Source of the DNA: Actinomycetes bacterium
GTDB taxonomy: Bacteria > Actinomycetota > Actinomycetes > Nanopelagicales > Nanopelagicaceae
Assembly (NCBI GenBank): GCA_947383695.1
Contig: OX376642.1
Coordinates: 186,001 to 250,000, forward strand
DNA: 64,000 nucleotides
Direction of reading: 5' to 3'
Shown: piece by piece, positions 15,818-62,060 of the stretch
How the letters are laid out: every line of letters begins with the position of its first letter
Numbering within the stretch: position 1 is the first letter of the stretch
Notes under the pieces: model-generated
Seen by the model: the letters and a program-made list of their open reading frames with translations, nothing else
Databases searched by the model: none
Told to the model about the DNA's origin: nothing
Translations under genes and position numbers: made by a program

Positions 15818-16891
15818 GTGAGCCTCTCTATCGGAATCGTCGGACTGCCCAATGTCGGAAAGTCGACCCTTTTTAATGCTCTGACCAAGAACAATGTTTT
15901 GGCCGCTAACTACCCCTTCGCCACAATCGAGCCCAATGTGGGAATCGTGGGAGTGCCAGATGAGCGTTTGGCCAAGCTCGCGACAATCTTTTCTTCAGAA
16001 AAACTTCTGCCAGCTGTGGTTTCCTTTGTAGATATCGCCGGAATCGTAAAGGGCGCATCAGAAGGTGCCGGGCTTGGCAACAAGTTCCTGACAAATATTC
16101 GTGACACCGATGCAATCTGTCAGGTCATCCGTGTTTTCACTGATGGCGATGTTGTTCACGTCGATGGTCGAGTCGATCCAGCATCGGATATGGAAACGAT
16201 CAATACTGAATTAGCGCTCGCAGATTTACAGACAATTGAAAAGGCGATTCCGCGTCTTGAAAAAGAAGCCCGCGTTGCAAAAGAAAAGGCGCCGGTCCTT
16301 GAAGCGGTAAAGGCTGCCAATGATTGGTTGCAATCAGGAAAGCCGTTGTCACAGAGTTCAATCGATCGCGAACTTTTGGCCGAACTTCATTTGCTCACTG
16401 CAAAACCATTTTTGTATGTTTTTAATGTTGATGCTGCCGAATTAAATGATCCAGAACTGAAGGCAAAGTTGCAGGCGTTGGTATCTCCAGCAGAAGCAAT
16501 TTTCTTGGATGCAAAAACAGAAGCAGAACTTGCAGAACTCAGCGATGAGGATGCATTGGAATTGTTGCAATCAATTGGTTTGAAAGAACCAGGTCTTGCA
16601 ACCTTGGCACGTGTTGGTTTCGATACTTTGGGATTGCAGACATATTTAACTGCAGGTCCAAAGGAAGCTCGCGCGTGGACGATTCACAAAGGTGACACCG
16701 CACCCATGGCCGCTGGTGTTATTCATACAGATTTCCAAAAGGGATTTATTAAGGCTGAAATCGTCAGCTTTGAAGATCTCATTGCCGCAGGATCTATGGC
16801 TGAAGCGAAAGCTAAGGGCAAGGTTCGTATGGAAGGCAAGGAATATGTAATGGCCGATGGAGATGTAGTGGAGTTCAGATTCAATGTCTAA
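15818..16891 (+). CDS. ychF: redox-regulated ATPase YchF (Obg family)
   Basis: 357 residues. G1 GLPNVGKST begins at residue 8, with NYPFATIEPN (switch I) and DIAGIVKGASEG (G3) following. The G4 motif is FNVDAAE in place of NKxD, as expected for this ATP-preferring subgroup. The middle holds a helical coiled-coil domain, and the C-terminus is a TGS domain ending KEYVMADGDVVEFRFNV. YchF binds ribosomes and affects stress responses. It overlaps typA by 8 bp, so the two genes are co-transcribed. Confidence 0.95.
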   Translation: MSLSIGIVGLPNVGKSTLFNALTKNNVLAANYPFATIEPNVGIVGVPDERLAKLATIFSSEKLLPAVVSFVDIAGIVKGASEGAGLGNKFLTNIRDTDAICQVIRVFTDGDVVHVDGRVDPASDMETINTELALADLQTIEKAIPRLEKEARVAKEKAPVLEAVKAANDWLQSGKPLSQSSIDRELLAELHLLTAKPFLYVFNVDAAELNDPELKAKLQALVSPAEAIFLDAKTEAELAELSDEDALELLQSIGLKEPGLATLARVGFDTLGLQTYLTAGPKEARAWTIHKGDTAPMAAGVIHTDFQKGFIKAEIVSFEDLIAAGSMAEAKAKGKVRMEGKEYVMADGDVVEFRFNV

Positions 16892-18782
16892 GAAGCAAGC
16901 ACACCTAGCAGGACTACCTGAAAAGAAGCGCGAAAATCTGCGTAACGTAGCGATCATTGCCCACGTTGACCACGGAAAGACAACACTGGTTGATGCCATG
17001 TTGTGGCAATCCGGCGCATTCGCAGCACACAAGGTTCAGGGCGAAGGCCAAGACCGCATGATGGATTCAATGGATCTTGAACGCGAAAAGGGAATTACGA
17101 TCCTTGCCAAGAACACCGCTGTTAAGCGCGGCGACACCATCGTTAACATCATTGATACTCCGGGCCACGCCGACTTCGGTGGCGAGGTAGAGCGCGGACT
17201 AGAAATGGTTGATGGCGTTATTTTGTTGGTAGATGCTTCAGAAGGTCCACTGCCTCAGACACGTTTCGTTTTGCGTAAAGCACTTGAGAAGAATCTTCCA
17301 GTAATTTTGTTGATCAACAAGGTTGATCGTCCCGATTCACGTATCGCTGAAGTTGTTGATGAGGCGTACGAACTCTTCCTTGATCTTGGAGCAAATGAAG
17401 AGCAGATTGAATTCCCAGTTGTCTACGCATCAGCTAAAGCTGGTCGTGCATCACTGAAGCGTCCTTCAGATGGTGGAATGCCAGAAGAAGAAAACCTCGA
17501 TGTTTTGTTTGACACTATCTTCTCTGCAATTCCTGCACCTGTGTATCACGAAGGCGCACCATTGCAAGCACACGTTACAAACCTTGACTCATCTCCATTC
17601 TTGGGTCGTCTTGCACTATGTCGCGTACGCGAAGGTGTTATTAAAAAGGGTCAGAACGTCACATGGATTAAGACAGATGGAACAACAGAGCGTGTAAAGA
17701 TTTCAGAGCTATTGATTACGGAAGCGCTAGAGCGTGTTCCAGCATTGGAAGCACACCCTGGAGACATCATTGCGGTAGCTGGTATCGACACAATCACATT
17801 GGGCGAAACCCTTGCTGATAATGAAAATCCACACGCACTTCCATTGATCATCGTTGATGAACCATCAATTTCTATGACAATCGGTATCAATACATCTCCA
17901 CTAGCGGGCAAGAGCGGAAAACTGCTTACTGCACGCCAGGTTAAGGGCCGTCTTGATGCAGAGCTCGTCGGTAACGTTTCATTGCGTGTTCTTAATACTG
18001 ATCGCCCAGATACATGGGAAGTTCAGGGACGTGGAGAGTTACAGCTTGCTGTTCTCGTTGAAATCATGAAGCGCGAAGGTTTCGAACTCACTGTTGGTAA
18101 GCCACAGGTAGTTATTAAGAAGATTGATGGCAAGGTTCACGAGCCAATGGAGCGTTTAACAATTGATGCACCTGAAGAGTACTTAGGTGTTCTTACTCAG
18201 TTGATGGCGCTTCGTAAGGGTCGCATGGAACAAATGGTTAATCACGGAACCGGTTGGATTCGTCTTGATTACAAGGTTCCATCACGTGGACTTATTGGTT
18301 TCCGTACCGAGTTCTTAACTGAAACTCGCGGAACTGGTTTACTACACCACGTCTTTGATGGTTACGAGCCTTGGTTCGGAGATATTCGTACACGTGCAAC
18401 TGGATCACTTGTTTCAGACCGCATGGGAACAGTTACATCGTATGCACTGTATGGAACACAAGATCGCGGAACTATTTTCGTAGAGCCAGGCGATGAGGTT
18501 TATGAAGGTATGGTTATTGGCGAGAACTCTCGTAACGATGACATGGATGTTAACTGTGTTCGCGAAAAGAAGCTTACAAACATGCGTGCTTCAGGTACTG
18601 ATGAATCAGAGCGTTTGATTCCGCCTAAGAAGCTCAACATGGAAGGTGCACTTGAGTTCTGTCGCGAAGATGAGTGCGTCGAGGTAACACCTGCGGTTGT
18701 TCGTATCCGCAAGGTTGTTCTTGATCAGAATGAGCGCGCACGTGCGACTTCTCGTCAGAAGAAGGCAAACCTCAACGCATAG
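16884..18782 (+). CDS. typA: translational GTPase TypA/BipA
   Basis: 632 residues. The GTPase domain has AHVDHGKTTLVDAML, EREKGITI, DTPGHADFGGEVER and NKVDRPDSR. EF-G-like domains III and V and the BipA-specific C-terminal domain follow (GTMTSYALYG-like segment, here GTVTSYALYGTQDRG). It assists 50S ribosome assembly and stress adaptation. It starts inside the end of ychF. The transcript ends at the strong stem-loop at 18800-18848. Confidence 0.95.
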   Translation: MSKKQAHLAGLPEKKRENLRNVAIIAHVDHGKTTLVDAMLWQSGAFAAHKVQGEGQDRMMDSMDLEREKGITILAKNTAVKRGDTIVNIIDTPGHADFGGEVERGLEMVDGVILLVDASEGPLPQTRFVLRKALEKNLPVILLINKVDRPDSRIAEVVDEAYELFLDLGANEEQIEFPVVYASAKAGRASLKRPSDGGMPEEENLDVLFDTIFSAIPAPVYHEGAPLQAHVTNLDSSPFLGRLALCRVREGVIKKGQNVTWIKTDGTTERVKISELLITEALERVPALEAHPGDIIAVAGIDTITLGETLADNENPHALPLIIVDEPSISMTIGINTSPLAGKSGKLLTARQVKGRLDAELVGNVSLRVLNTDRPDTWEVQGRGELQLAVLVEIMKREGFELTVGKPQVVIKKIDGKVHEPMERLTIDAPEEYLGVLTQLMALRKGRMEQMVNHGTGWIRLDYKVPSRGLIGFRTEFLTETRGTGLLHHVFDGYEPWFGDIRTRATGSLVSDRMGTVTSYALYGTQDRGTIFVEPGDEVYEGMVIGENSRNDDMDVNCVREKKLTNMRASGTDESERLIPPKKLNMEGALEFCREDECVEVTPAVVRIRKVVLDQNERARATSRQKKANLNA

Positions 18783-18799
18783 TTCTTGAATCTTCAATT

Positions 18800-18848
18800 A
18801 AAAAGTCCCGCTTCGAAAGCCGCTTCAACCTTTCTACGCGGGCTTTTT
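18800..18848 (+). terminator. typA terminator with CCGCTTCAAC loop (element A)
   Basis: The outer stem pairs AAAAAG plus CCCGC (18800-18811) with GCGGG and CTTTTT (18838-18848). It ends in five T, so it can act as a Rho-independent terminator. The inner stem is GAAAG (18815-18819) with CTTTC (18830-18834), closing a 10-nt loop CCGCTTCAAC (18820-18829). The same loop on different stems occurs at 18878-18940 (minus) and 56028-56101. The element may therefore be more than a plain terminator. Confidence 0.75.
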
Positions 18849-18877
18849 AATTTCAGAAAAGAGCTATGCGCCGAGGA

Positions 18878-18940
18878 AGAATCAAATGGGTGATGCGGAG
18901 AAAAGTTGAAGCGGTTTTCGCAGCAAGACCATTTGATTCT
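18878..18940 (-). ncRNA. structured element B, CCGCTTCAAC stem-loop on the minus strand
   Basis: The outer stem is a perfect 12-bp inverted repeat (18878-18889 with 18929-18940, AGAATCAAATGG and its complement). An asymmetric internal loop follows. The inner 5-bp stem is GAAAA/TTTTC in minus-strand sense (18919-18915 with 18904-18900), capped by CCGCTTCAAC (18914-18905). It lies between the typA terminator and adnA and points opposite to both. There is no U-run, so it is not a classical terminator. It could be a separate small RNA, part of an antisense read-through transcript, or a DNA-level cruciform. No known class was recognised. Confidence 0.5.
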
Positions 18941-18982: not shown

Positions 18983-21900
18983 GTGACTGTGAGTAAGCAG
19001 CCATTCAGCCTTGTACGACAAGTACTTCAGGCTTCCCCGCTTACCTTGGATGCGGATCAGCAAGCTGTTGTTGCACACAGAGGTTCACCGATTGTTGTTC
19101 AAGGTGGACCAGGCACAGGAAAGACAACTGTTTTAGTTGAAGCAGCATTAGCGCGCATTCAAGAAGGTCAAAATCCAGATTCAATTTTGCTATTGACTTA
19201 CGGTCGAGAGCGAGCATCAGAGTTACGTGATGCAATCGCGCTTCGCACAACCAAGACGATGTTTGAACCATTGGCGCGAACTTTCCATTCGCTAGCGTTT
19301 TCAATCTTGAAGATGAAGGCAAAGGGCGATCCTGATCCGATTTTGCTCAGCGGGCCAGAACAAGAAAGTTACATTCGGGAATTGCTTAAGGGCGATATCG
19401 AAGATGGCTTTAAGGAGTGGCCAGAGGATTTACACAAAGCGCTAACTACAAATGGTTTTGCCCGCGAACTTCGCGATTTGATTTTGCGTGCATCAGAACG
19501 TGGCATCGATGCAGATGAGTTAGCGGTTCTTGGTAAGCAAGAGGGTGAAAAGTATTGGCAGGCAGCGGCAGCGTTCTGGAAGCGGTATGTGAATTCCATG
19601 GTGATGCGCGAGTTCAGCGCACAAGATGCAAAGTTGCGTATCGATCCATCTGAACTAGTTTCCCGTGCATCCATTCATCTGCGCAATAACCCTGATTTGT
19701 TGGATCAATTGCGTAATCGCTTCACAACAATCATGGTGGATGAGTTTCAGGAAAGTGATCCAGCACAACGCGAACTATTGGCCTTGCTGGCTGGTAACGA
19801 TGTAATCATCTGTGCTGATGCAGATAGCGCAGTTGGTCGTTTCCGCGGTGCAGACCCAGATGGATTAGCAGCAGCGTTAGATCCATACCGTGCAATTGAA
19901 GTTGTACTTTCTAGTGTGTATCGCAGCGCACCAGAGATCTTTGAGGTTGGGCATGAGTATGTCCAAGGATTCCGCGGATCGCCAGTAACCCGCAAGCGCT
20001 CATGTGCCTCAGAAAAGGGCGGTTTTGTTGGGATTCATCGCTTTAGGAGCGGGGCAGAGGAAGCAGCATTTATCGCTCATCAATTCCGCAGTGCCCATCT
20101 TCGTCAAGGAGTTTCTTATAGCGATATGGCGGTGATCCTGCGCTCCCCAGGAGTTCAAGCAGCTGCGTTACGTCGTGCATTTTCACAAGTTGGAATCCCA
20201 GTTGCATCTGAGCTTCAAGCGCTAGCTGGCAATCCTGCAATTGCTCCATTTTTGTTGCTCGCACGTGTTGCAATCGGTGCTCAACCGTTGAACTTAGATA
20301 CCGCAGAGCGTTTGTTAATGAGCGAATTCGGTGGCGCAGATTCAATCTCGTTGCGTCGTATTCGCCGAGCGATGATTACCGCTCGTCCGGATGGTGATGA
20401 GCGTTCAGGCACTCAGCTGTTGTTGGATGCAATCAATGATGGCGAATTATTTATTGAAGGTGCCGACAGTGTTCTTCGTGTTCATGCATTACTAAAAGGC
20501 GCGAAGGCGATTGCACGTAACAAGACAGCCTTAGCCGATGACCTGTTGTGGTTTATTTGGGATAACGCAGTAACAAGTGATGGTCAGAAGTTGTCCGTGG
20601 CTTGGCGCAATCAAGCGCTGCGACCAGGAGTTCGTGGAGCTGCTGCAGATCGTGACTTGGATGCGATGATGCAGTTGTTTGAATCAGCACAACGTTTCTC
20701 TGAGCGCTTTCCTTTGTCAGGACCAGCTGCCTTTATTAACGAGATCGCAACTGAAGATATTGCAGGCGATGTGATTACCGCCAAAGGTGTTCGTCCAGAT
20801 TTCGTAGAGATCCTTACTGTGCACAGTGCAAAAGGTCGTCAGTGGCAGGTTGTTGCAATCGCTGGGTTACAAGAGGGCACCTGGCCTAACTTGAAGCAAC
20901 GTTCATCCTTGTTAGGTGCAGAGCGTTTAGTAGAACGAAAGCGCAACCCAGATATTCCACGTGATCAACTAGATGTCATCGCTGCCAATGGGCTGATGCA
21001 AGATGAACAACGTTTGTTCCATGTGGCGCTAACCCGCGCCCAGCAATCACTTTTCGTGACCGCGGTTCAGCGTGAGGATGAAGAGCCATCACAGTTCTTT
21101 GAGGCTGTTGAAGTTATGGTTAACAAAAGCGATGAGGATGAACATGTATTAACCGATGTTCCTCGTCCAATTACAGCGCCTGCTTTAGTTGCTGAACTTC
21201 GTGCCCAACTTGCTGGACCCAAGGCAAAAGAGGCCGCTGCGTTGTTGAAGGCGATGAGCACCGAGGGAATTTATCTTGCAAACCCTGACAGCTGGATTGG
21301 TTCTGTTCCATTGAGCACTGATGCACCTGTAATTGATCCTGACAAAGAAGTAATTGTTTCGCCATCAGGTGCTGAAAGCTTTGTGGAATGTGGAGTCAAG
21401 TGGTTCCTGCAAAACAATGGTGGCTCAGATGGCGATAGCACCGCACAGGTTTTGGGTTCTGCGATTCATGCCTTTGCTGCAAAGATGGTGCAAGAGCCAG
21501 GCACAACTCGCGAACAGTTAATTGAGAATCTACAAAGCTCATGGAAGTTGATAGATCCTGATAGTGGTTGGGTCAGCGCATCACATCTTGAATCCGCGGT
21601 CACCATGCTTGAAAAGTTTGTTGAGTACCACAAAGAGACAACACGCGAAGTTAAGGGAGCCGAACTTCGCTTTGATGTAAAGCTCGGACGTGCTCGCATT
21701 ATTGGAACAGTAGATCGCCTTGAGGTTGAAGCTGATGGTTCACTATTCATCATTGACTTCAAAACAGGTAACACCGCAATTAGCAAAGAGGATGCCAAGA
21801 AGAATCTGCAACTTGCTAGCTATCAATTGGGTGTTCATGAAGGTGGATTTACCGATGGCGACAAGAGTGCTGGTGCCGAGCTTGTGTACCTCGGAACAAG

Positions 21901-22090
21901 TAGCGCAGGTGCATCAATCCGCCAGCAGTATGCGATTGATCTGGAAGAGACCAAGCAAACTATTGAAACCATTGGCGAGGGCATGGGAGCTGCAACCTTC
22001 TTTGCCACCGTTAATAAGCGCTGTAAAGGCTGCCCAGTAAGGAAATCCTGCCCTGTTCAAAGCGATGGTCGGGCGGTGATTGAGCAATGA
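18983..22090 (+). CDS. adnA: helicase-nuclease subunit AdnA
   Basis: 1035 residues. The UvrD-type motor has Walker A GGPGTGKTT at 41-49, DEFQ in motif II, and TVHSAKGRQWQ in the C-terminal motor half. The RecB-family nuclease domain at about 790-1030 carries GTVDRLE and IIDFKTG metal-binding motifs. Cys803 with Cys1014, Cys1017 and Cys1023 form the C-n-CxxCx5C arrangement of Fe-S nucleases of the AddB/Cas4 type. AdnAB resects DNA double-strand breaks in Actinobacteria. It is followed by adnB with an ATGA overlap, the same order as Rv3202c-Rv3201c. Confidence 0.9.
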   Translation: MTVSKQPFSLVRQVLQASPLTLDADQQAVVAHRGSPIVVQGGPGTGKTTVLVEAALARIQEGQNPDSILLLTYGRERASELRDAIALRTTKTMFEPLARTFHSLAFSILKMKAKGDPDPILLSGPEQESYIRELLKGDIEDGFKEWPEDLHKALTTNGFARELRDLILRASERGIDADELAVLGKQEGEKYWQAAAAFWKRYVNSMVMREFSAQDAKLRIDPSELVSRASIHLRNNPDLLDQLRNRFTTIMVDEFQESDPAQRELLALLAGNDVIICADADSAVGRFRGADPDGLAAALDPYRAIEVVLSSVYRSAPEIFEVGHEYVQGFRGSPVTRKRSCASEKGGFVGIHRFRSGAEEAAFIAHQFRSAHLRQGVSYSDMAVILRSPGVQAAALRRAFSQVGIPVASELQALAGNPAIAPFLLLARVAIGAQPLNLDTAERLLMSEFGGADSISLRRIRRAMITARPDGDERSGTQLLLDAINDGELFIEGADSVLRVHALLKGAKAIARNKTALADDLLWFIWDNAVTSDGQKLSVAWRNQALRPGVRGAAADRDLDAMMQLFESAQRFSERFPLSGPAAFINEIATEDIAGDVITAKGVRPDFVEILTVHSAKGRQWQVVAIAGLQEGTWPNLKQRSSLLGAERLVERKRNPDIPRDQLDVIAANGLMQDEQRLFHVALTRAQQSLFVTAVQREDEEPSQFFEAVEVMVNKSDEDEHVLTDVPRPITAPALVAELRAQLAGPKAKEAAALLKAMSTEGIYLANPDSWIGSVPLSTDAPVIDPDKEVIVSPSGAESFVECGVKWFLQNNGGSDGDSTAQVLGSAIHAFAAKMVQEPGTTREQLIENLQSSWKLIDPDSGWVSASHLESAVTMLEKFVEYHKETTREVKGAELRFDVKLGRARIIGTVDRLEVEADGSLFIIDFKTGNTAISKEDAKKNLQLASYQLGVHEGGFTDGDKSAGAELVYLGTSSAGASIRQQYAIDLEETKQTIETIGEGMGAATFFATVNKRCKGCPVRKSCPVQSDGRAVIEQ

Positions 22091-37969: not shown

Positions 37970-37989
37970 TTAAGAAAAGGGGACTGACA

Positions 37990-39501
37990 ATGTCTAGCAA
38001 CTTTAATGTCGTGGAGATGAATGATATTTCTAAATCATTCTTCGGCGTTAAAGTGCTAGACAATGTCAGTTTTGCGGTAACTTCTGGAGAAATTCATGCC
38101 TTAGCAGGAGAAAATGGGGCAGGAAAGTCAACGTTGATGAAAATTCTTCAGGGTGTCTACACATTAGATTCTGGTGAAATTCAAGTTACTGGTGAAAAGG
38201 CCTCAATACATTCATTTCAAGATGCTCGTAAATATGGAATAGGCATGGTTTTCCAAGAGTTCTCGCTCGTCCCTGAACTGTCAGTTGCCCAAAATATTTT
38301 CTTGGATCGTGAACATAAAAATAGATTTCACCTCTTTGATGAGAAAGAAACAATCAGGCAGTCAAAACTTGTCATGGAAGAGCTAGGTCTAGATATAGAT
38401 GTAACTGCAAAAGTTTCATCTCTAGGCCGTGCACTTCAGCAGTTAACCGAAATTGCGAAAGCCATTGCCGGGGATGCAAAGATTCTAATCTTGGATGAAC
38501 CGACAGCATCGCTGGCGAAGGAAGAAGTGGATGCACTTTTTAAAGTTCTAAAACAGTTGACTGCGCGTGGAGTTTCGATTGTGTATATAAGCCACCGGAT
38601 GGATGAGATTTACAGAATATGCGATCGCATTACAATTTTGCGAGATGGAAAAAAGATTGCTGTTTCTTTACTTTCTGAGATTTCTCCACAAGAAATTATT
38701 GCTCATATCACTGGGCGTAAAGATGTTGAAATGTTAACTCATGAAGGCAAATCTATCGTTCGATCATCTACTCCAATATTCGAAGCAAGTGGAATTCAAG
38801 TAGGTAGTCGTGTGAATAATGTTTCTTTTAAGCTTTATCCAGGCGAAATTCTCGGCTTGGCTGGTCTCATGGGAAGTGGGCGTACAGAACTCGTTAGAGC
38901 AATATTTGGATTAGATAAAAAAGATGGTGGAGCACTGAAGATTGATGGACAGGATGTAGTAATTAAAAATCCACGCGAGGCAATCGCACACGGATTTGCC
39001 TTGATTCCAGAAGATCGTCGCCGTCAAGGCCTTGTGATGGAGCATTCTGTGAAACAAAACATTTTAGCCGCAAATTTGTCCTCACTTTCACATCTGAATT
39101 TCCTGAGTTTTTCTAAAATAAATAACGTAGTTCAAGATTCAATCGAGAGTTTTGAAGTTAGGCCATCTGATGCAAACAGAGAAGTTCGCCTTCTTTCCGG
39201 CGGCAATCAGCAAAAAGTAGTTATTGCTAAATGGATGGCCACTAATCCAAAGATCGTTCTTATGGATGAACCAACAGTTGGAGTTGATATTGGAACGAAA
39301 GTTGAAATCATGAAATTAGTTCGAGCTATTGCAGCGGAAGGGAAATCTGTGATTCTCATTTCATCAGAACTACCAGAGTTGCTTGGGGTATGTGATCGAA
39401 TCCTGGTGATAAGAAAAGGCGAGATTGCTGAAGAGTTAGACCGTAAAGATGTCAGAGATGAAGACCATCTACAAATGATCGTTCAAGGGATAAAAGTATG
39501 A
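37990..39501 (+). CDS. sugar ABC transporter ATP-binding protein (RbsA/MglA type)
   Basis: 503 residues with two tandem ABC domains, as in RbsA. The first has Walker A GENGAGKST and ILDEPTASL. The second has GLMGSGRTEL in place of a canonical Walker A, signature LLSGGNQQKV and Walker B VLMDEPTVGVD. It energises import through the permease encoded next, with an ATGA overlap. AAGGGGA is upstream of the ATG. Codon use from here to about 42.5 kb includes more ATA and AGA than in the housekeeping genes. Confidence 0.92.
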   Translation: MSSNFNVVEMNDISKSFFGVKVLDNVSFAVTSGEIHALAGENGAGKSTLMKILQGVYTLDSGEIQVTGEKASIHSFQDARKYGIGMVFQEFSLVPELSVAQNIFLDREHKNRFHLFDEKETIRQSKLVMEELGLDIDVTAKVSSLGRALQQLTEIAKAIAGDAKILILDEPTASLAKEEVDALFKVLKQLTARGVSIVYISHRMDEIYRICDRITILRDGKKIAVSLLSEISPQEIIAHITGRKDVEMLTHEGKSIVRSSTPIFEASGIQVGSRVNNVSFKLYPGEILGLAGLMGSGRTELVRAIFGLDKKDGGALKIDGQDVVIKNPREAIAHGFALIPEDRRRQGLVMEHSVKQNILAANLSSLSHLNFLSFSKINNVVQDSIESFEVRPSDANREVRLLSGGNQQKVVIAKWMATNPKIVLMDEPTVGVDIGTKVEIMKLVRAIAAEGKSVILISSELPELLGVCDRILVIRKGEIAEELDRKDVRDEDHLQMIVQGIKV

Positions 39502-48247: not shown

Positions 48248-48664
48248 TTAAGACTTATCGTTTTGAATTAAGTGAAGAGCAGCGGTGCGGGCGAGGAAAG
48301 ATACTCGCTCCACCGCTGATCTTTTTATTAAAGCCGCTGCTATCTGGCGCTCATTTTCATAGACCTCACATTCAAAGGTCAACTCTTTTCCTGATATCTC
48401 AATGACTCGTGAAGTTGCGCGCAAAGATGCACCAATTCCTGCGGGGGATAATGAAATAAACTCAACACTAATGGGAATAGTTGTCTCACCTGGTTCTAGG
48501 TAGAGATCTAAAGAAAGTATCGCTGCGTGTTCCATTAAATTAATAAGCAAAGATGGAGCGATGATCGGAAGATCACCAATTCCAATCGCAACAGATGTAT
48601 CTCCGGGGCGGACAACCATCTCTGTTAACCCAACAGCGCCGAGTACCTCATCATCAGGCAACAT
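48248..48664 (-). CDS. hotdog-fold thioesterase, FlK-like
   Basis: 138 residues. The pattern IIAPSLLINLMEHAAILSLDLYLEPGETTIPISVEF matches the fluoroacetyl-CoA thioesterase-like family (Thr/Glu/His catalytic layout), followed by the RATSRVIEISGKELTFECEVY strand pair. It probably cleaves an acyl-CoA; physiological substrate unknown. It starts 2 bp after the anti-sigma stop in the SigR-like operon, which links it to the thiol/oxidative response. It is convergent with sodN. Confidence 0.75.
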   Translation of the reverse strand: MLPDDEVLGAVGLTEMVVRPGDTSVAIGIGDLPIIAPSLLINLMEHAAILSLDLYLEPGETTIPISVEFISLSPAGIGASLRATSRVIEISGKELTFECEVYENERQIAAALIKRSAVERVSFLARTAALHLIQNDKS

Positions 48665-49738: not shown

Positions 49739-50482
49739 CTAAAAGAGGGTTTCTGGCTCTCCCAAAGGCAGTTCGACGATTAAACCTTTTCCATTATTTG
49801 CCACCGTATTGACCGCGCTGGAAACGGGATGGGCTTTCACAATTGATTCAGGATTCTCAACCACCATTAGGGATTTCAACTCATTCACATCGGTATTGCG
49901 GGGATTGAGCCAGGTATCCCAGCGATCCTGTGGCATAAAGACTGGCATGCGACTATGAATCGTTGCTAGCTCGCCTTGAGCTTCCTGGGTAATAATTGAT
50001 GCGGTTTCAATAACTTCACCATTAGGTGCTCGCCAACTGCTCCAGATTCCGGCGATCGGAAGTTGTTTCTCATCACGCGCAGAAATATAGAAAGGTTGTT
50101 TAGGGGAGTACTTGCCTAACGCGGTTGCCCATTCGTAGTAACCAGTTGCTGGAATCAAACACCGGGTTGCGCGAAATGCATTTCTAAAGGTCGGCTTTTC
50201 GTGAATTGATTCGCTGCGTGCATTGATTGCACGCGATTGCGAAGCACGTGCCTCTTGGAAATCTGTCAGCCAAGGACCGATTAATCCCCATGAAACTACC
50301 GCTAACGCTTTTTTCGCTTCCGCATCATTGCCCGATTGATCATTGGCTCTGACTATATAAATGGGATTAGTTGGTGCGATATTCCAATTCAGTGGCAGCG
50401 AACTTTCAGGAGAGGTGCCAGTTACTGAGAACTGCTCCATAAGCTCGCGCATATCCGCGGTCTGCGCATAACGTCCACACAT
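49739..50482 (-). CDS. yedK: SOS response-associated peptidase / abasic-site crosslinking protein (YedK/HMCES)
   Basis: 247 residues. The catalytic Cys2 is exposed after Met removal (MCGRYAQ). The conserved NARSESIHEKPTF, RCLIPATGYYEW (active-site Glu) and TIHSRMPVFM (active-site His) follow. It forms a thiazolidine crosslink with abasic sites in single-stranded DNA. A minus-strand TACCCT box is exactly 6 nt before the ATG, so the gene looks leaderless. It is divergent from aroA by 44 bp. Confidence 0.92.
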   Translation of the reverse strand: MCGRYAQTADMRELMEQFSVTGTSPESSLPLNWNIAPTNPIYIVRANDQSGNDAEAKKALAVVSWGLIGPWLTDFQEARASQSRAINARSESIHEKPTFRNAFRATRCLIPATGYYEWATALGKYSPKQPFYISARDEKQLPIAGIWSSWRAPNGEVIETASIITQEAQGELATIHSRMPVFMPQDRWDTWLNPRNTDVNELKSLMVVENPESIVKAHPVSSAVNTVANNGKGLIVELPLGEPETLF

Positions 50483-52856: not shown

Positions 52857-53759
52857 ATGAGCACAGCTAATGGTTCAGCGCAGATTCTTGATGATCTCGC
52901 CCTTGCCCACGCATTAGCCGATCTTGCAGATGCAATTACCTTAGATCGCTACCAAGCTCAAGATTTAGTAATTGCGACCAAGCCGGACAACACCCCTGTC
53001 ACCGATGCAGATCGCGCAGTTGAAACCGCAATCCGTGAAGCGCTAGCAACTCATCGCACATCAGATGGTTTAGTGGGCGAAGAGTTTGGAAGCGATAAAG
53101 GAAGTTCTGGTCGTTACTGGGTTTTTGATCCAATTGATGGAACAAAAAACTTTATGCGCGGCGTTCCAACCTGGGCAACCTTAATTGCACTTGTTCAAGT
53201 CGATGCAGCAGGCAATGAAGAGGTTGTCGTTGGAATCGCAAGTGCACCTGCATTAGCTCGACGTTGGGCTGCAGCAAAGGGACACGGTGCAACGGTTCGC
53301 TTCAATGCTGGAAATGCTGAATATGAAATCGGAGATACATCTGGTGATGACTTTGCCTACTCCGATACAGACAGTAATTTTCAGACTCTCGCATTAGCAC
53401 CCAATGAGAAGAAGATTTCAGTGTCAAAGGTTTCAACTCTTGCTGATGCATCTATTTCATACTCAGATTTTGTTGGTTGGGGAGATCGCATAGAGCCATT
53501 CCAAAAGATGCTTGCAGGTGCGTGGAGAACCCGCGGTATCGGAGATTTCTGGTCACACATGTTGGTGGCAGAAGGTGCGGTTGATGTTGCGATTGAGCCA
53601 TCACTTGCGCTGTGGGATATGGCGGCGTTAGACATCATTGTTCGCGAAGCAGGTGGAAGTTTTTCAAATACAGCTGGCCAGAGTGGTCCATTTGGCGGAA
53701 GCGGAGTTTCAACCAATGGCGTACTTCATAACCAAGTTATAAAGGGGTTAAATCCATGA
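52857..53759 (+). CDS. hisN: histidinol-phosphatase, inositol monophosphatase family
   Basis: 300 residues. Metal-binding motifs are GEEFGSD (74-80), DPIDGTKNF (91-99) and a late LWDMAALDIIVREAGG. It dephosphorylates histidinol phosphate in histidine synthesis, the usual role of this actinobacterial form downstream of aroA and rsgA. It carries an acidic insertion of about 30 residues near 150-185 (EIGDTSGDDFAYSDTD) absent from typical 260-270-residue HisN. A TAGACT box overlapping the rsgA stop lies 9 nt before the ATG. It overlaps copA by 4 bp. Confidence 0.88.
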   Translation: MSTANGSAQILDDLALAHALADLADAITLDRYQAQDLVIATKPDNTPVTDADRAVETAIREALATHRTSDGLVGEEFGSDKGSSGRYWVFDPIDGTKNFMRGVPTWATLIALVQVDAAGNEEVVVGIASAPALARRWAAAKGHGATVRFNAGNAEYEIGDTSGDDFAYSDTDSNFQTLALAPNEKKISVSKVSTLADASISYSDFVGWGDRIEPFQKMLAGAWRTRGIGDFWSHMLVAEGAVDVAIEPSLALWDMAALDIIVREAGGSFSNTAGQSGPFGGSGVSTNGVLHNQVIKGLNP

Positions 53760-56029
53760 GCCAGCTACTGGAACCAACAACCCTTTCAGTTCAAGGAATG
53801 ACCTGTTCTTCGTGTGTGAACTCAGTTGAAAAAGCGCTCAATAGTGTTGATGGCGTAAGCGCAACAATTAACTTTGCAACAGAAACAGCACACATTTTGG
53901 CCCCAGCTGAAATGAGCGCAAAAGAGTTAATAAAGATTGTTGAAAAAGCAGGGTATTCAGCATCTGTTTTAGCAGATGGCCAATCAATTACCTTGCACAG
54001 CAAGAAGTCAGCCCGAGCACTGTTCTTTGCATTTATCTTTGCCGTGCCTGCAGTAACTATTTCTATGGTCATGAGCTGGCACCATCAAATCGATATGTGG
54101 GTTCATGATGCATTAGATGCAGCGGGTCTGCCTCATCCTTTGTACTCACCAACGGCATGGGTAGTTATTGCACTTAGTGCTCCAGTTGTCTTGTTAATCG
54201 CATATCCAATTCATAAAGCAGCGATTAGAAATCTTAAGCATCCGACAATGGATAACTTAATTTCTATGGGAACACTTGCCGCATTTGGCTGGTCTATCTA
54301 TGCCAACTCAACTGGTGCCGGCGATGTTTATACCGAAGTTGCAGCAGGTGTTGTCTTCTTTGTAATTTTGGGTCGCTACCTTGAAACCCGCGCAAAAGCT
54401 AAAGCCAGCAGCGCTCTTTCATCTTTGCTTGCCCTCGGTAGTAAAGAGGTAACAATCGTTCGTGGGGGATTCCCACTGATAGTTCCAATCGAACAACTAC
54501 AAATTGGTGATGAGTTTGAGGTACGCCCAGGAGATCGCATCGCAACTGATGGTATCGTTGTTAAGGGTGAAAGCGCCGTTGATAACTCGATGCTTACCGG
54601 TGAAACAAAGCCGGTAGATGTTCGTGCAGGATCATCTGTGATTGGTGCTGCTGTTAACCACAATGGCCGTTTAATTGTTCGAGCCACACGAGTTGGAAGT
54701 GACACAGAGCTTGCACGAATTACCGCAATGGTTATCAGCGCGCAAGGAACCAAAGCCCCAATTCAACGTCTTGCTGATCGAATTAGCGCAGTCTTTGTTC
54801 CGATTGTTACCGCAGGTGCGATCGCTACCTTTGCAGTTTGGTATGCAACTGGTTCAACTCTGACAGTTTCAATTTCGCATGCGATCGCAGTTCTTGTCAT
54901 CGCATGCCCATGTGCACTTGGTTTGGCTACTCCTGTTGCACTTTTGGTCGCATCAGGTCGTGGTGCTACCCGCGGAATTGTTTTGCGCGAGCCTCGAGTT
55001 CTAGAAGTAGCCCGCAATGTAGATGTTGTTGTATTTGATAAGACAGGCACCCTTACTGAAGGTGTGATGCTTGTTCAAGAGGCAACTGTTTCAACCGCAG
55101 CCGGTGCTGTTCTAGGCCGTTCATTTGCCGAGATTGTTACCGCAGAGAACATCATCGCATCGGCTCAAGCGATTGAATCCTTGAACAACCATCCTGTTGC
55201 GCAATCAATTACACGGCATGCACTAGCGCACAATGCCTCCGCACCATCTATTCCGAGCTCTTCACGTCCCACCTATGCAGTTTCTGATTTCTCGGTGACT
55301 CCAGGTTCAGGTGCTGCAGGTCGTGTATCAATTCTTTCTCAATCACCAGTTGTTCTGATTGGTTCACCTGCTGCAGTTGCGCATAGCTCAACGGAGTTTC
55401 ATCCAGAGATTAAATCAGCAGTTGATCGCGGACAAGCAGCAGGATTAACTCTGGCGGTTCTTGCCTGGGATGGCGTTGCATTGGCTGTCTTTGCAGTGGG
55501 AGATCAACTCAAGAGCGACGCAGCACAAACGGTTTCCGCTCTTGTTGATATGGGAATTACCCCATGGCTTGTCACCGGCGATAGCTCCGAGGTTGCAGCA
55601 ACAGTTGCACAAACTGTTGGGATTGATGCAGCTCATGTTATTTCTCATGCATTACCGGAAACCAAGTTAGAGATTGTTGAGCGGTTAAAGAGTGAGGGTC
55701 ACACAGTTTTAATGATTGGTGATGGCATTAATGATGCCGCTGCTCTAACCGCTGCAAATCTTTCAATGGCGATGGGAACAGGTACAGATACTGCTATCAA
55801 TAGCGCTGATATCACCTTGATGAATAGCGGTCTTGGAAGCGTAGTTTCTGCACTGAAACTTTCTACAAAGACCTTAAAGATCATCCGTATCAATATGGGA
55901 TGGGCTTTGATCTATAACGTAATCGGTATTCCAATTGCAGCGGCTGGGTTGTTGTCACCGTTGTATGCAGCAGCTGCCATGGCGGCAAGTAGTGTGCTGG
56001 TTGTTACTAACTCACTGCGTATTAAATAA
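53756..56029 (+). CDS. copA: copper-translocating P1B-type ATPase
   Basis: 757 residues. The N-terminal HMA domain has GMTCSSC (C17, C20). Eight helices follow, with the transport motif CPC (ACPCALGLATP), TGE (MLTGETKPVD), phosphorylation DKTGTLTEG, HP (NHPVAQ) and MIGDGINDAAAL. It exports Cu(I) and is the last gene of the aroA operon; no copper regulator or chaperone is next to it. Its stop codon lies inside the outer stem of structured element C. Confidence 0.94.
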   Translation: MSQLLEPTTLSVQGMTCSSCVNSVEKALNSVDGVSATINFATETAHILAPAEMSAKELIKIVEKAGYSASVLADGQSITLHSKKSARALFFAFIFAVPAVTISMVMSWHHQIDMWVHDALDAAGLPHPLYSPTAWVVIALSAPVVLLIAYPIHKAAIRNLKHPTMDNLISMGTLAAFGWSIYANSTGAGDVYTEVAAGVVFFVILGRYLETRAKAKASSALSSLLALGSKEVTIVRGGFPLIVPIEQLQIGDEFEVRPGDRIATDGIVVKGESAVDNSMLTGETKPVDVRAGSSVIGAAVNHNGRLIVRATRVGSDTELARITAMVISAQGTKAPIQRLADRISAVFVPIVTAGAIATFAVWYATGSTLTVSISHAIAVLVIACPCALGLATPVALLVASGRGATRGIVLREPRVLEVARNVDVVVFDKTGTLTEGVMLVQEATVSTAAGAVLGRSFAEIVTAENIIASAQAIESLNNHPVAQSITRHALAHNASAPSIPSSSRPTYAVSDFSVTPGSGAAGRVSILSQSPVVLIGSPAAVAHSSTEFHPEIKSAVDRGQAAGLTLAVLAWDGVALAVFAVGDQLKSDAAQTVSALVDMGITPWLVTGDSSEVAATVAQTVGIDAAHVISHALPETKLEIVERLKSEGHTVLMIGDGINDAAALTAANLSMAMGTGTDTAINSADITLMNSGLGSVVSALKLSTKTLKIIRINMGWALIYNVIGIPIAAAGLLSPLYAAAAMAASSVLVVTNSLRIK

Positions 56030-56101
56030 TTTAAATGGGTAAGGGCTCGCTAGAGAGCCGCTTCAACCTCTCTGCGCTTCGCCCTTTTACCCATTTAAAT
56101 T
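56028..56101 (+). ncRNA. structured element C, CCGCTTCAAC stem-loop downstream of copA
   Basis: A perfect 13-bp outer stem (56028-56040 with 56089-56101, AATTTAAATGGGT) overlaps the copA stop codon. It is followed by AAGGGC/GCCCTT with a TT bulge, a CGC/GCG pair, and the inner stem AGAGAG (56052-56057) with CTCTCT (56068-56073), closed by loop CCGCTTCAAC (56058-56067). The loop is identical to that of elements A and B, while the stems differ and keep pairing. There is no long U-run, so it is not a typical terminator. Confidence 0.65.
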
Positions 56102-56158
56102 CACACACCGCTTTGATTTGTTCAGTAACAACCAGTCCGCTGGGAGTATAGATAAAGC

Positions 56159-56186
56159 AAAAAGGCCCTCTGATGAGGACCTTTTT
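56159..56186 (-). terminator. terminator downstream of tRNA-fMet, bidirectional
   Basis: AAAAAGG and CCTC (56159-56170) pair with GAGG and CCTTTTT (56175-56186) around TGAT with one mismatch. Read on the minus strand it ends in a T-run and lies 4 bp past the tRNA 3' end. On the plus strand it also carries a T-run and could catch read-through from copA. Confidence 0.82.
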
Positions 56187-56190
56187 GTAT

Positions 56191-60581: not shown

Positions 60582-61892
60582 ATGACACCTTTTGGCTTCA
60601 CACCAGGAAACTCAGATGACTCTAATGAGCCAGTTGATTTTGCTGCCATGATGCAACAGATGCAGCAACAGATTCAAGAGCAGTTCTCAAAGCTGGGAAT
60701 CAATGCAACAGGTTTTGGTGGTTCTACTGAAGCCCTTCCTAAAAACCTTGTTCGCGACACCGCTAAGAAGTTTGCGACCGCGCAAGGCTCTGCACCAATT
60801 GGCGCAAATGATGTTTCTGATGTGGAACAAGCATTTTCTATTGCAGAGCTATGGCTCAACGATGCAACTTTCTTCCCACAATCTCCCAATGTGGGAAATT
60901 CTGCGCTAGCTCGCACCGATTGGGTCGATACGACCTTGGCGGGATGGCAAACAACTGTTGAACCGCTAGCAATCGGTTTGTCCTCTGCAATTGGTGAACT
61001 ACTTAAGCAAGCCGGTACAGGTGATGGATCACCTCTTGGTGGAGATGATCCATCTCGTCAGGAGAACATGCAGCTTCCAATCGGAATGATCTCTGCACTT
61101 CTGAACTCTTTTATTGGTTCTTTGATTGCAACACAGCTTGGACAAGCAATTGGGGGGTTAGCTGGCAAGGTGACTGGTGCACATGATGTGGGCTTACCGC
61201 TGATTGATGCTGCTTATCCGACCCTTGTTCCTCAAAATATTAAGGAATGGGCTACTGATCTTGATATTCCAATGGATGAGGTTCGTATCTTCCATGCCTT
61301 GCGCGAAGCAGCGATTGCACGGTTGTTTGCTCATAACCCTTGGTTAGTGTCGTACATTCGCACAGCGATTACCGATTACGGCAAAGGCATCAACATTGAT
61401 ATGGATGCGATTCAAGAACAAGCACAACGCGCACTTGAATCAGGCAATGGTTTTGATCCATCTAACCCGGAAAGTTTCACAATCGCGCTCAATGATGGAA
61501 TTTTCACACCACAAGAATCGCCTGCACAGCGTGCTGCGTTAACTAAGTTAGAGACAGCTCTTGCATTAATTGATGGATGGAGCGAAGAGGTTGTTGCACT
61601 TGCTGCAGGTGATCGTCTTCCAAATATTGCAGCGCTTCAAGAAACATTGCGACGTCGTCGTGCAACATCTGCACCGGCGCAACAACTCTTCTCTTCGCTC
61701 TTAGGTTTACAGGTTTCACCACGACTTGCACGTGAAGCGACAGCTTTTTGGAAGCAGGTTCGCGAGTTAAAGGATGTTGAATCACGTGATCGTGTGTGGA
61801 GTGGAATTCTTCCAACTGCAGATGATCTATTAACACCCGAGAGTTTCATGAAGAGCCTTGAAGTGCCTGATGATCTCTCTGGATTGCTCTAG
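60582..61892 (+). CDS. DUF2342 / zinc-dependent metalloprotease-like protein
   Basis: 436 residues. The actinobacterial family TIGR03624/DUF2342 (Rv3195) is recognised by FGFTPG at the start, QMQQQIQEQ, LIATQLGQAIGGL and VRIFHALREAAIARLFAHNPWL, ending DDLLTPESF. It is annotated as putative hydrolase or zinc metalloprotease; the catalytic claim is weak because a canonical HExxH is not evident. It is divergent from the S16 operon and upstream of the M48 gene, as in M. tuberculosis. GGGAGGA precedes the ATG. Confidence 0.82.
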   Translation: MTPFGFTPGNSDDSNEPVDFAAMMQQMQQQIQEQFSKLGINATGFGGSTEALPKNLVRDTAKKFATAQGSAPIGANDVSDVEQAFSIAELWLNDATFFPQSPNVGNSALARTDWVDTTLAGWQTTVEPLAIGLSSAIGELLKQAGTGDGSPLGGDDPSRQENMQLPIGMISALLNSFIGSLIATQLGQAIGGLAGKVTGAHDVGLPLIDAAYPTLVPQNIKEWATDLDIPMDEVRIFHALREAAIARLFAHNPWLVSYIRTAITDYGKGINIDMDAIQEQAQRALESGNGFDPSNPESFTIALNDGIFTPQESPAQRAALTKLETALALIDGWSEEVVALAAGDRLPNIAALQETLRRRRATSAPAQQLFSSLLGLQVSPRLAREATAFWKQVRELKDVESRDRVWSGILPTADDLLTPESFMKSLEVPDDLSGLL

Positions 61893-61924
61893 AAATCCGT
61901 TGCGTTGCCCTAGAAATAGAAAAG

Positions 61925-61995
61925 CGAACTCCCCGGTCACTTGCTCTAAGTCAGCCTTCCCCTTGCTGACGTAGAACTGTTATCCGAGGAGTTCG
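61925..61995 (+). ncRNA. candidate structured RNA, resembling the actinobacterial 6C RNA
   Basis: The outer stem is CGAACTCC (61925-61932) with GGAGTTCG (61988-61995). An inner hairpin is GTCAGC (61950-61955) with GCTGAC (61965-61970) and loop CTTCCCCTT. A second C-rich single-stranded stretch (CTCCCC) opens the outer stem. Two C-rich segments in loops are the hallmark of 6C (B11) RNA, though here each run has four C rather than six. A U7 terminator ends the transcript at 62083. The intergenic region has no ORF. Class is tentative, structure is clear. Confidence 0.5.
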
Positions 61996-62060
61996 TAGTC
62001 GTAAAGTAAGTCTTTCGGGACGGTTTATCAAATGAGCGCGACGTTGACAGAAGGTGTTTT

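What the first reader, a model, noticed from the sequence alone, without database searches (positions are those of the whole stretch)
18800..18940. Recurrent stem-loop with invariant CCGCTTCAAC loop on covarying stems (typA-adnA gap)
Two elements stand side by side on opposite strands after typA. A (18800-18848, plus) has inner stem GAAAG/CTTTC. B (18878-18940, minus) has GAAAA/TTTTC and a perfect 12-bp outer stem. Both are capped by exactly CCGCTTCAAC. A third copy (56028-56101) uses AGAGAG/CTCTCT. Stem bases change in compensation while the 10-nt loop is fixed, which indicates selection on an RNA structure and a loop-binding partner, or a DNA hairpin recognised by a protein. Only these three loop copies were found by eye in 64 kb, all intergenic and all near 3' ends of genes.
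Basis: seen in the sequence. Interest (0 to 1): 0.82.

Follow-up and report, generated by a model that had tools for sequence, protein, structure and literature searches.

The report
Terminator hairpins sharing a fixed cap
Three hairpins behind bacterial genes really do share one fixed tip on different stems, but the matching stem changes look mainly like a DNA-copying habit that mirrors gene ends, not proof of an RNA-binding partner; what remains puzzling is why the same short tip sits on unrelated gene ends.

Summary
In detail: CCGCTTCAAC occurs three times in the window, each time capping a hairpin; the 11 other copies in the genome lie in open frames. A is the typA terminator, whose stem and T-run exist in close relatives, with a new apex. 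C is an extra stretch behind copA, found in 3 of 135 genomes searched; the two relatives carry CCGCATCAAC. Outer arms of A and C mirror neighbouring host sequence, including coding 3' ends, as replication template switching would produce. Mismatches show no G-U excess on the gene-sense strand (11 G-U, 29 A-C in 13 hairpins). Two further cores in a sister clade (loop TAACRANC) show the same architecture at typA, an FeS/rhomboid gap and rpsA, in either orientation relative to the gene (4 against 5), which argues against a strand-specific RNA loop partner. Best reading: gene-end hairpins, some of them terminators, with a short shared apical core and arms grown and kept complementary by template switching. 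How one core reached unlinked sites is unexplained and is the interesting remainder. No Rfam match.

The parts
18800..18850 (+). Hairpin A: typA intrinsic terminator (A-run, CCCGC/GCGGG stem, T-run) with the core I apex
   Evidence: RNA fold -16.4 kcal/mol; same lower stem and T-run with another apex behind typA in G035 and G107
18810..18839 (+). Core I copy in A: GCTTCGAAAG CCGCTTCAAC CTTTCTACGC
18770..18876 (+). Extended inverted repeat around A; left arm includes the last 13 nt of typA (stop codon included), right arm is its imperfect inverted copy (39 Watson-Crick of 47 aligned pairs, 3 gaps)
   Evidence: highest inverted-repeat score of 464 kb scanned (26.5; three shuffled versions reach 20.0-22.5)
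18878..18940 (-). Hairpin B: core I in opposite orientation, perfect 12-bp outer stem; the adnA-side arm resembles host sequence that stands without a hairpin in G073 and G078
18895..18924 (-). Core I copy in B: GCTGCGAAAA CCGCTTCAAC TTTTCTCCGC
56028..56101 (+). Hairpin C behind copA: loop CCGCTTCAAC on AGAGAG/CTCTCT, outer stem AATTTAAATGGGTAA/TTACCCATTTAAATT
55997..56135 (+). Extended inverted repeat around C, including CTGGTTGTTACT of the copA coding 3' end and its inverted copy; the middle part is poorly matched
   Evidence: score 24.5, second of 464 kb
56158..56187 (-). Separate terminator-like hairpin between C and the tRNA gene; similar hairpins stand in several relatives that lack C
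16884..18782 (+). typA
18983..22090 (+). adnA-like helicase gene (GTG start)
53756..56029 (+). copA-like metal ATPase gene

Best explanation
These are gene-end hairpins, some of them intrinsic terminators, that carry a short shared apical core (about 20-32 nt including an 8-10 nt loop). SHOWN by sequence: the shared core, the sites without it, the terminator ancestry of A, the mirrored host arms of A and C, and, for the sister-clade cores, both orientations. INFERRED: the arms were made and are kept complementary by replication template switching (a nascent strand folds back or jumps, copies one arm into the other, and sometimes inverts what lies between); the coding arm survives selection and the non-coding arm is overwritten, so the coding side looks original. 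INFERRED and weakest: one core sits at unlinked sites because a short DNA stretch was copied from one site to another, not because several sites evolved the same RNA loop. Likely present function: A terminates typA transcription through its stem and T-run; B and C are at most bidirectional gene-end hairpins.
For: Terminator ancestry: G035 AAAAAAGCCCG...CGGGCTTTTTT and G107 AAAGGCCCG...CGGGCCTTT behind typA. Sites without C: the copA-to-tRNA gap is 164 bp with C in G000, G029, G148 and 31-70 bp without it in the other 10 of 13 loci that could be parsed, of 26 given. Mirrored arms: A 39 Watson-Crick of 47 aligned pairs, reaching into typA; C ends in a 12-of-12 match to copA coding sequence. typA ends CTCAACGCATAA in G011, G094, G135 and G149, so the coding arm of A is the old one. 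B: host CCGTTTGATTCAGAGCG stands without a hairpin in G073 and G078. Coupled arm change with fixed core: typA hairpin of G013 against G141, three double changes in the arms, one one-sided change to T-G, one change in an unpaired base, 21-nt core identical (read); C, one A-to-G/T-to-C double change in the outer stem. Orientation: gene-sense loop TAACRANC in 4 and its complement in 5 of 9 hairpins with a defined sense. No G-U excess: 11 G-U and 29 A-C in 13 hairpins read on the gene strand. Arm homogenisation and spacer inversion are documented outcomes of template switching (PMC8604942, abstract and passages; PMC8794818, abstract and passages). Core sharing at unlinked loci: I at typA and copA; II at typA (G013 twice, G141, G099) and FeS/rhomboid (G075, G074, G130, G022), 21 invariant columns in 8 sequences; III at typA (G031, G129, G074; G075 with one loop change) and behind rpsA in G031 with one loop change.
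Against: Template switching alone does not explain one core at unlinked loci. Core II is invariant over 21 columns while arms change, which suggests selection on the core (though PMC8604942, passage, notes that inverted-repeat regions can look conserved through repeated switching). The outer matches contain chance: shuffled sequence reaches scores of 20.0-22.5, A and C exceed that only moderately, and B (17.5) does not. A coding inverted repeat elsewhere scores 23.0. In the FeS/rhomboid gap both outer arms are coding, so complementarity there may be partly coincidental. A and C carry core I on the gene-sense strand; flipped orientation rests on cores II and III and on B. The A-C excess would be a G-U excess on the antisense strand, and it includes two near-identical relatives and weak outer parts. 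G099 has the core without mirrored arms (score 6.0).
Confidence: 0.58

Rival explanations
1. One reading: a structured RNA element whose fixed loop binds a protein or RNA, with stems held by selection on RNA pairing.
For: Loop recurs in hairpins beyond chance; 4 of 9 pairs change on both sides; core II invariant over 21 columns in 8 sequences.
Against: Core orientation relative to the gene varies in the sister clade; no G-U excess on the sense strand; loop changed behind copA in G029/G148; arms run into coding sequence; B is antisense to both neighbours; only 3 hairpin copies in the genome; no Rfam match.
Confidence: 0.12
2. A small mobile palindromic element (MITE-like or REP-like) that moves as DNA and settles in gene-end hairpins; A plus B would be its two ends and C a solo copy.
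For: A and B cores are 26 of 30 identical and inverted (read); the same paired arrangement with core II behind typA in G013; sites without C.
Against: One to three copies per genome found; no transposase was searched for; the sequence between A and B looks like inverted copies of the flanks rather than element sequence; no target-site duplication identified; no similar DNA in phage records and only a 30-base match inside a plasmid pdhA gene; viral-contig matches to cores II and III lie in open frames.
Confidence: 0.18
3. Ordinary intrinsic terminators whose loops resemble each other by shared ancestry or chance.
For: A is clearly the typA terminator; the rpsA core of G031 sits in a stem followed by TTTTTAAT; loops of orthologous typA terminators are similar among close relatives.
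Against: No other loop of 8 nt or more recurs among intergenic hairpins of 464 kb; B and C lack a T-run of five; a 21-nt block shared by unlinked loci is not chance.
Confidence: 0.12

Closest known systems
Template-switch (quasipalindrome) hairpins, PMC8794818 and PMC8604942 (abstracts and passages seen)
   Same: Arms are reverse-complement copies, multi-base compensation, inverted loop or spacer; bacterial examples are mentioned.
   Different: Nothing in the passages read describes one apical core shared by unlinked sites.
Intrinsic (Rho-independent) terminators
   Same: A and the rpsA hairpin of G031 have a stem and T-run behind a gene.
   Different: 8-10 nt loop on a long extra apex; B and C lack the T-run; shared core.
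REP / BIME palindromic elements (definition seen in passages of PMC12306157)
   Same: Extragenic palindromes near gene ends, here also in inverted pairs.
   Different: 1-3 copies per genome found; stems vary and the loop is fixed. That REP families usually keep the stem is recalled, not tested.

Membership tests
Template-switch hairpin | One arm is an inverted copy of pre-existing neighbouring sequence | tested here: met
   A and C arms mirror typA and copA ends; host flanks without the hairpin in relatives. For B only over a short stretch, and its score is within the shuffled range.
Template-switch hairpin | Arm homogenisation and inversion of the segment between arms | tested here: inconclusive
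   Consistent: coupled arm changes G013/G141; core orientation differs between typA loci of G031 and G129 and of G141 and G099. The events themselves were not traced on a tree.
Intrinsic terminator | GC stem followed directly by a T-run behind a gene | tested here: inconclusive
   A: GCGGGCTTTTT, also in relatives; B and C: no. The consensus scan reported none around A; it allows loops only up to 8.
Rfam RNA family | Match at a family's gathering score | tested here: not met
   Only the tRNA in the window; permissive searches gave only weak matches below gathering scores, e.g. plant microRNA models spanning A and B as one inverted repeat.
REP element | Many highly similar extragenic copies in one genome | tested here: not met
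   3 hairpin copies of core I in the genome.
Structured RNA with loop-binding partner | Loop kept in homologous sites on the transcribed strand | tested here: not met
   CCGCATCAAC in G029/G148; both orientations for cores II and III.
MITE | Terminal inverted repeats with target-site duplication and a related transposase | not tested
   Inverted core pairs seen (A/B; G013), but no duplication identified and no transposase search made.

The most novel reading that the evidence does not exclude
A family of tiny DNA cassettes (20-32 nt, orientation-independent) that moves between gene-end hairpins by a structure-directed, single-strand process and, once installed, lets template switching turn its flanks into long mirror-image arms; each lineage has its own cassette.
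Probability: 0.17. Interest if true: 0.75.

Novelty: new variant of a known kind. Interest (0 to 1): 0.48.

Why it matters
Compensatory stem changes are a standard sign of functional RNA. Here is a bacterial case where stems covary strikingly while the arms look copied at the DNA level, so covariation alone could mislead RNA discovery. The shared apical core at unlinked gene ends poses a sharp question: what copies or keeps a 20-30 nt hairpin tip?

Tried and rejected
Rfam: nothing relevant at the gathering threshold; permissive searches of 351 bases around A/B and of six loci gave only weak matches. Exact stem-loop scan of genome contigs: 28 stretches, 28 of 28 inside open frames of at least 131 codons, so coding matches; 12 of the 28 have a stem of 5 or more pairs by chance or code. 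Viral contigs: 0 for core I with stem; 3 for core II and 2 for core III, all in open frames. Phages: no match; plasmids: one 30-base match in a pdhA gene; only the A/B region was sent, not C. Core II with up to 2 mismatches matched 27 places in 25 of 135 genomes, but the reversed control also matched often; 7 places are exact, and all 7 are hairpins of this kind; the others I judged by their folds not to be. Core III with up to 3 mismatches: 16 places in 15 genomes; 4 are hairpins of this kind, 6 of the rest were folded and 6 others lie in open frames of at least 252 codons. Model R1 beyond the true hits: G129 at 30.4 bits and 9 of the 10 hits of 20-25.5 bits were folded and do not form the hairpin; of the three weak hits in the own genome two lie in open frames of 318 and 379 codons and one (position 50340) was not examined. 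Model R2 search scored at most 45 candidates per genome, so weak copies may be missed.

Literature: the loop as RNA letters in 0 papers; searches on palindromes with conserved loops, on terminators and palindromes, on spacer inversion in bacterial genomes and on the presumed group of bacteria listed nothing on shared apical cores; only listings were seen there apart from passages of PMC12306157. A-B pairing: the two cores could pair on the + strand (-44.7 kcal/mol for the duplex; -16.4 and -24.9 for the separate hairpins, stretches of different length); this follows from being inverted copies, so I do not lean on it. typA was not found in G029 and G148, so A/B orthologues there are untested. 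Integron attC and recombinase sites were considered from memory and dropped without a test. A first hairpin script returned nothing because it allowed no gaps and was replaced. The two matches outside the own genome: G052 was folded, G031 was not.

Full report
OBSERVATION. In the whole genome (1,431,431 bases) it occurs 14 times, against 22 for the pattern read backwards, so the bare 10-mer is ordinary; the other 11 lie in long open frames. In hairpin context it is special: among intergenic hairpins in 464 kb of this genome no other loop of 8 nt or more recurs. Four of nine pairs change on both sides across A, B and C.

WHERE IT OCCURS. A model of the three (R1) searched against 135 genomes of the genus, many of them incomplete drafts, found A, B, C, and C orthologues in G029 and G148 at 41.6 bits; the next hits (30.4 bits and lower) that I folded do not form the hairpin. 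In G029 and G148 the loop is CCGCATCAAC and one outer pair has changed on both sides. Behind copA, 13 of 26 loci given could be parsed: the gap is 164 bp in G000, G029 and G148 and 31-70 bp, without the hairpin, in the other 10; for two of the unparsed, G035 and G107, one search shows the same shortening. I read the typA gap in 92 loci of 86 genomes, own included (the genome count is mine from the call lists; two loci are cut short): apart from the own locus the 10-mer is in two, both inside the next gene.

WHAT A IS. Close relatives carry an ordinary terminator behind typA: G035 AAAAAAGCCCG...CGGGCTTTTTT, G107 AAAGGCCCG...CGGGCCTTT. A has the same lower stem and T-run with a different apex. 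A is therefore the typA terminator with a new cap. B stands where G073 and G078 have the plain host sequence CCGTTTGATTCAGAGCG; the window has CCATTTGATTCTGAGCG plus a mirrored copy of its first part on the other side.

THE ARMS. Allowing gaps, the inverted repeat of A runs over 18770-18876 and includes the last 13 nt of typA; that of C runs over 55997-56135 and ends in 12 matching bases of copA coding sequence. They are the two highest scores of 464 kb (26.5, 24.5), followed by a coding-start inverted repeat at 23.0; three shuffled versions reach 20.0-22.5. So the excess is real but moderate, the outermost bases are partly chance, and B (17.5) is within the shuffled range. typA ends of the form CTCAACGCATAA occur in four relatives, so the coding arm of A is the old one and the intergenic arm the copy.

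A SECOND AND THIRD CORE. Behind typA in G013 two opposed hairpins share GGCGC TAACAATC GCGCC. The same 21-nt block (CGGCGCTAACAATCGCGCCTA, 21 invariant columns in 8 sequences, one with an extra loop base) occurs behind typA in G141 and G099, and in the gap between an FeS oxidoreductase and a rhomboid gene in G075, G074, G130 and G022; a model search of 135 genomes, at most 45 candidates scored in each, found these 8 copies in 7 genomes plus three weak hits. A third core, loop GCTCGTTA (complement TAACGAGC), occurs behind typA in G031, G129 and G074, with one change in G075 (GCTCCTTA), and as GTTCGTTA behind rpsA in G031. Names of these neighbouring genes are by eye from the translations. Cores II and III share the loop TAACRANC, except G075. 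The seven carrier genomes that could be placed fall in a 27-tip clade (support 0.76) of a midpoint-rooted tree of 89 short typA fragments, which excludes G000 (G129 and G130 not placed).

ORIENTATION AND PAIRING. In nine such hairpins with a defined gene sense, TAACRANC is on the sense strand in four (G013 h1, G141, G129, rpsA of G031) and its complement in five (G013 h2, G099, G031 typA, G074, G075). G099 carries the core without mirrored arms (score 6.0). Mismatches in 13 hairpins read on the gene strand are 11 G-U and 29 A-C; in the four convergent FeS hairpins 6 and 4; in G099 5 and 0 (sums mine). Selection on a sense RNA would favour G-U; no such excess is seen. The counts include weak outer parts and two near-identical relatives.

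MECHANISM. Template switching during replication is reported to create reverse-complement stems, homogenise arms and invert the spacer (PMC8794818 and PMC8604942, abstracts and passages). That accounts for mirrored coding ends, coupled arm changes and flipped cores, and removes the need for an RNA partner as the cause of compensation. It does not account for one core at unlinked loci. Ectopic copying, a mobile hairpin, or selection on a DNA- or RNA-level core remain open. The invariance of core II against changing arms hints that the core is not neutral.

VERDICT. Real and unusual; not an established RNA motif. The outer part is a known mutational phenomenon on gene-end hairpins, at least one of them a terminator; the shared apical core is a new variant that needs strain-level data. 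I recall, from no call, that a small actinobacterial genome of this kind may belong to the freshwater acI group; the tools did not name it.

Noticed in passing
window 61886-62037: Strong hairpin with loop CTTCCCCTT at and behind the gene ending at 61892, also found in stretches of G148 (L213), G063 (L206) and G075 (L210); the only Rfam match of the window is the tRNA. Candidate structured RNA.
   Followed up: partly
window 37983-38070: Inverted repeat (score 23.0, third of 464 kb) overlapping the start of an ABC-type ATPase gene (name by eye).
   Followed up: partly
window 48262-48332: Hairpin with loop GAAAGATA inside the 3' end of a minus-strand ORF (48248-48664); a similar one with GGAAAGATAA is in G075 (L210:4538-4604).
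   Followed up: no
L034, typA gap of G013: Two opposed hairpins sharing core II in the same arrangement as A and B in the window.
   Followed up: yes
G117 contig C35, 1727-2004 and 6369-6519: A second partial typA 3'-end match about 4.6 kb (start to start) from the first, perhaps a partial duplication or an assembly effect.
   Followed up: no
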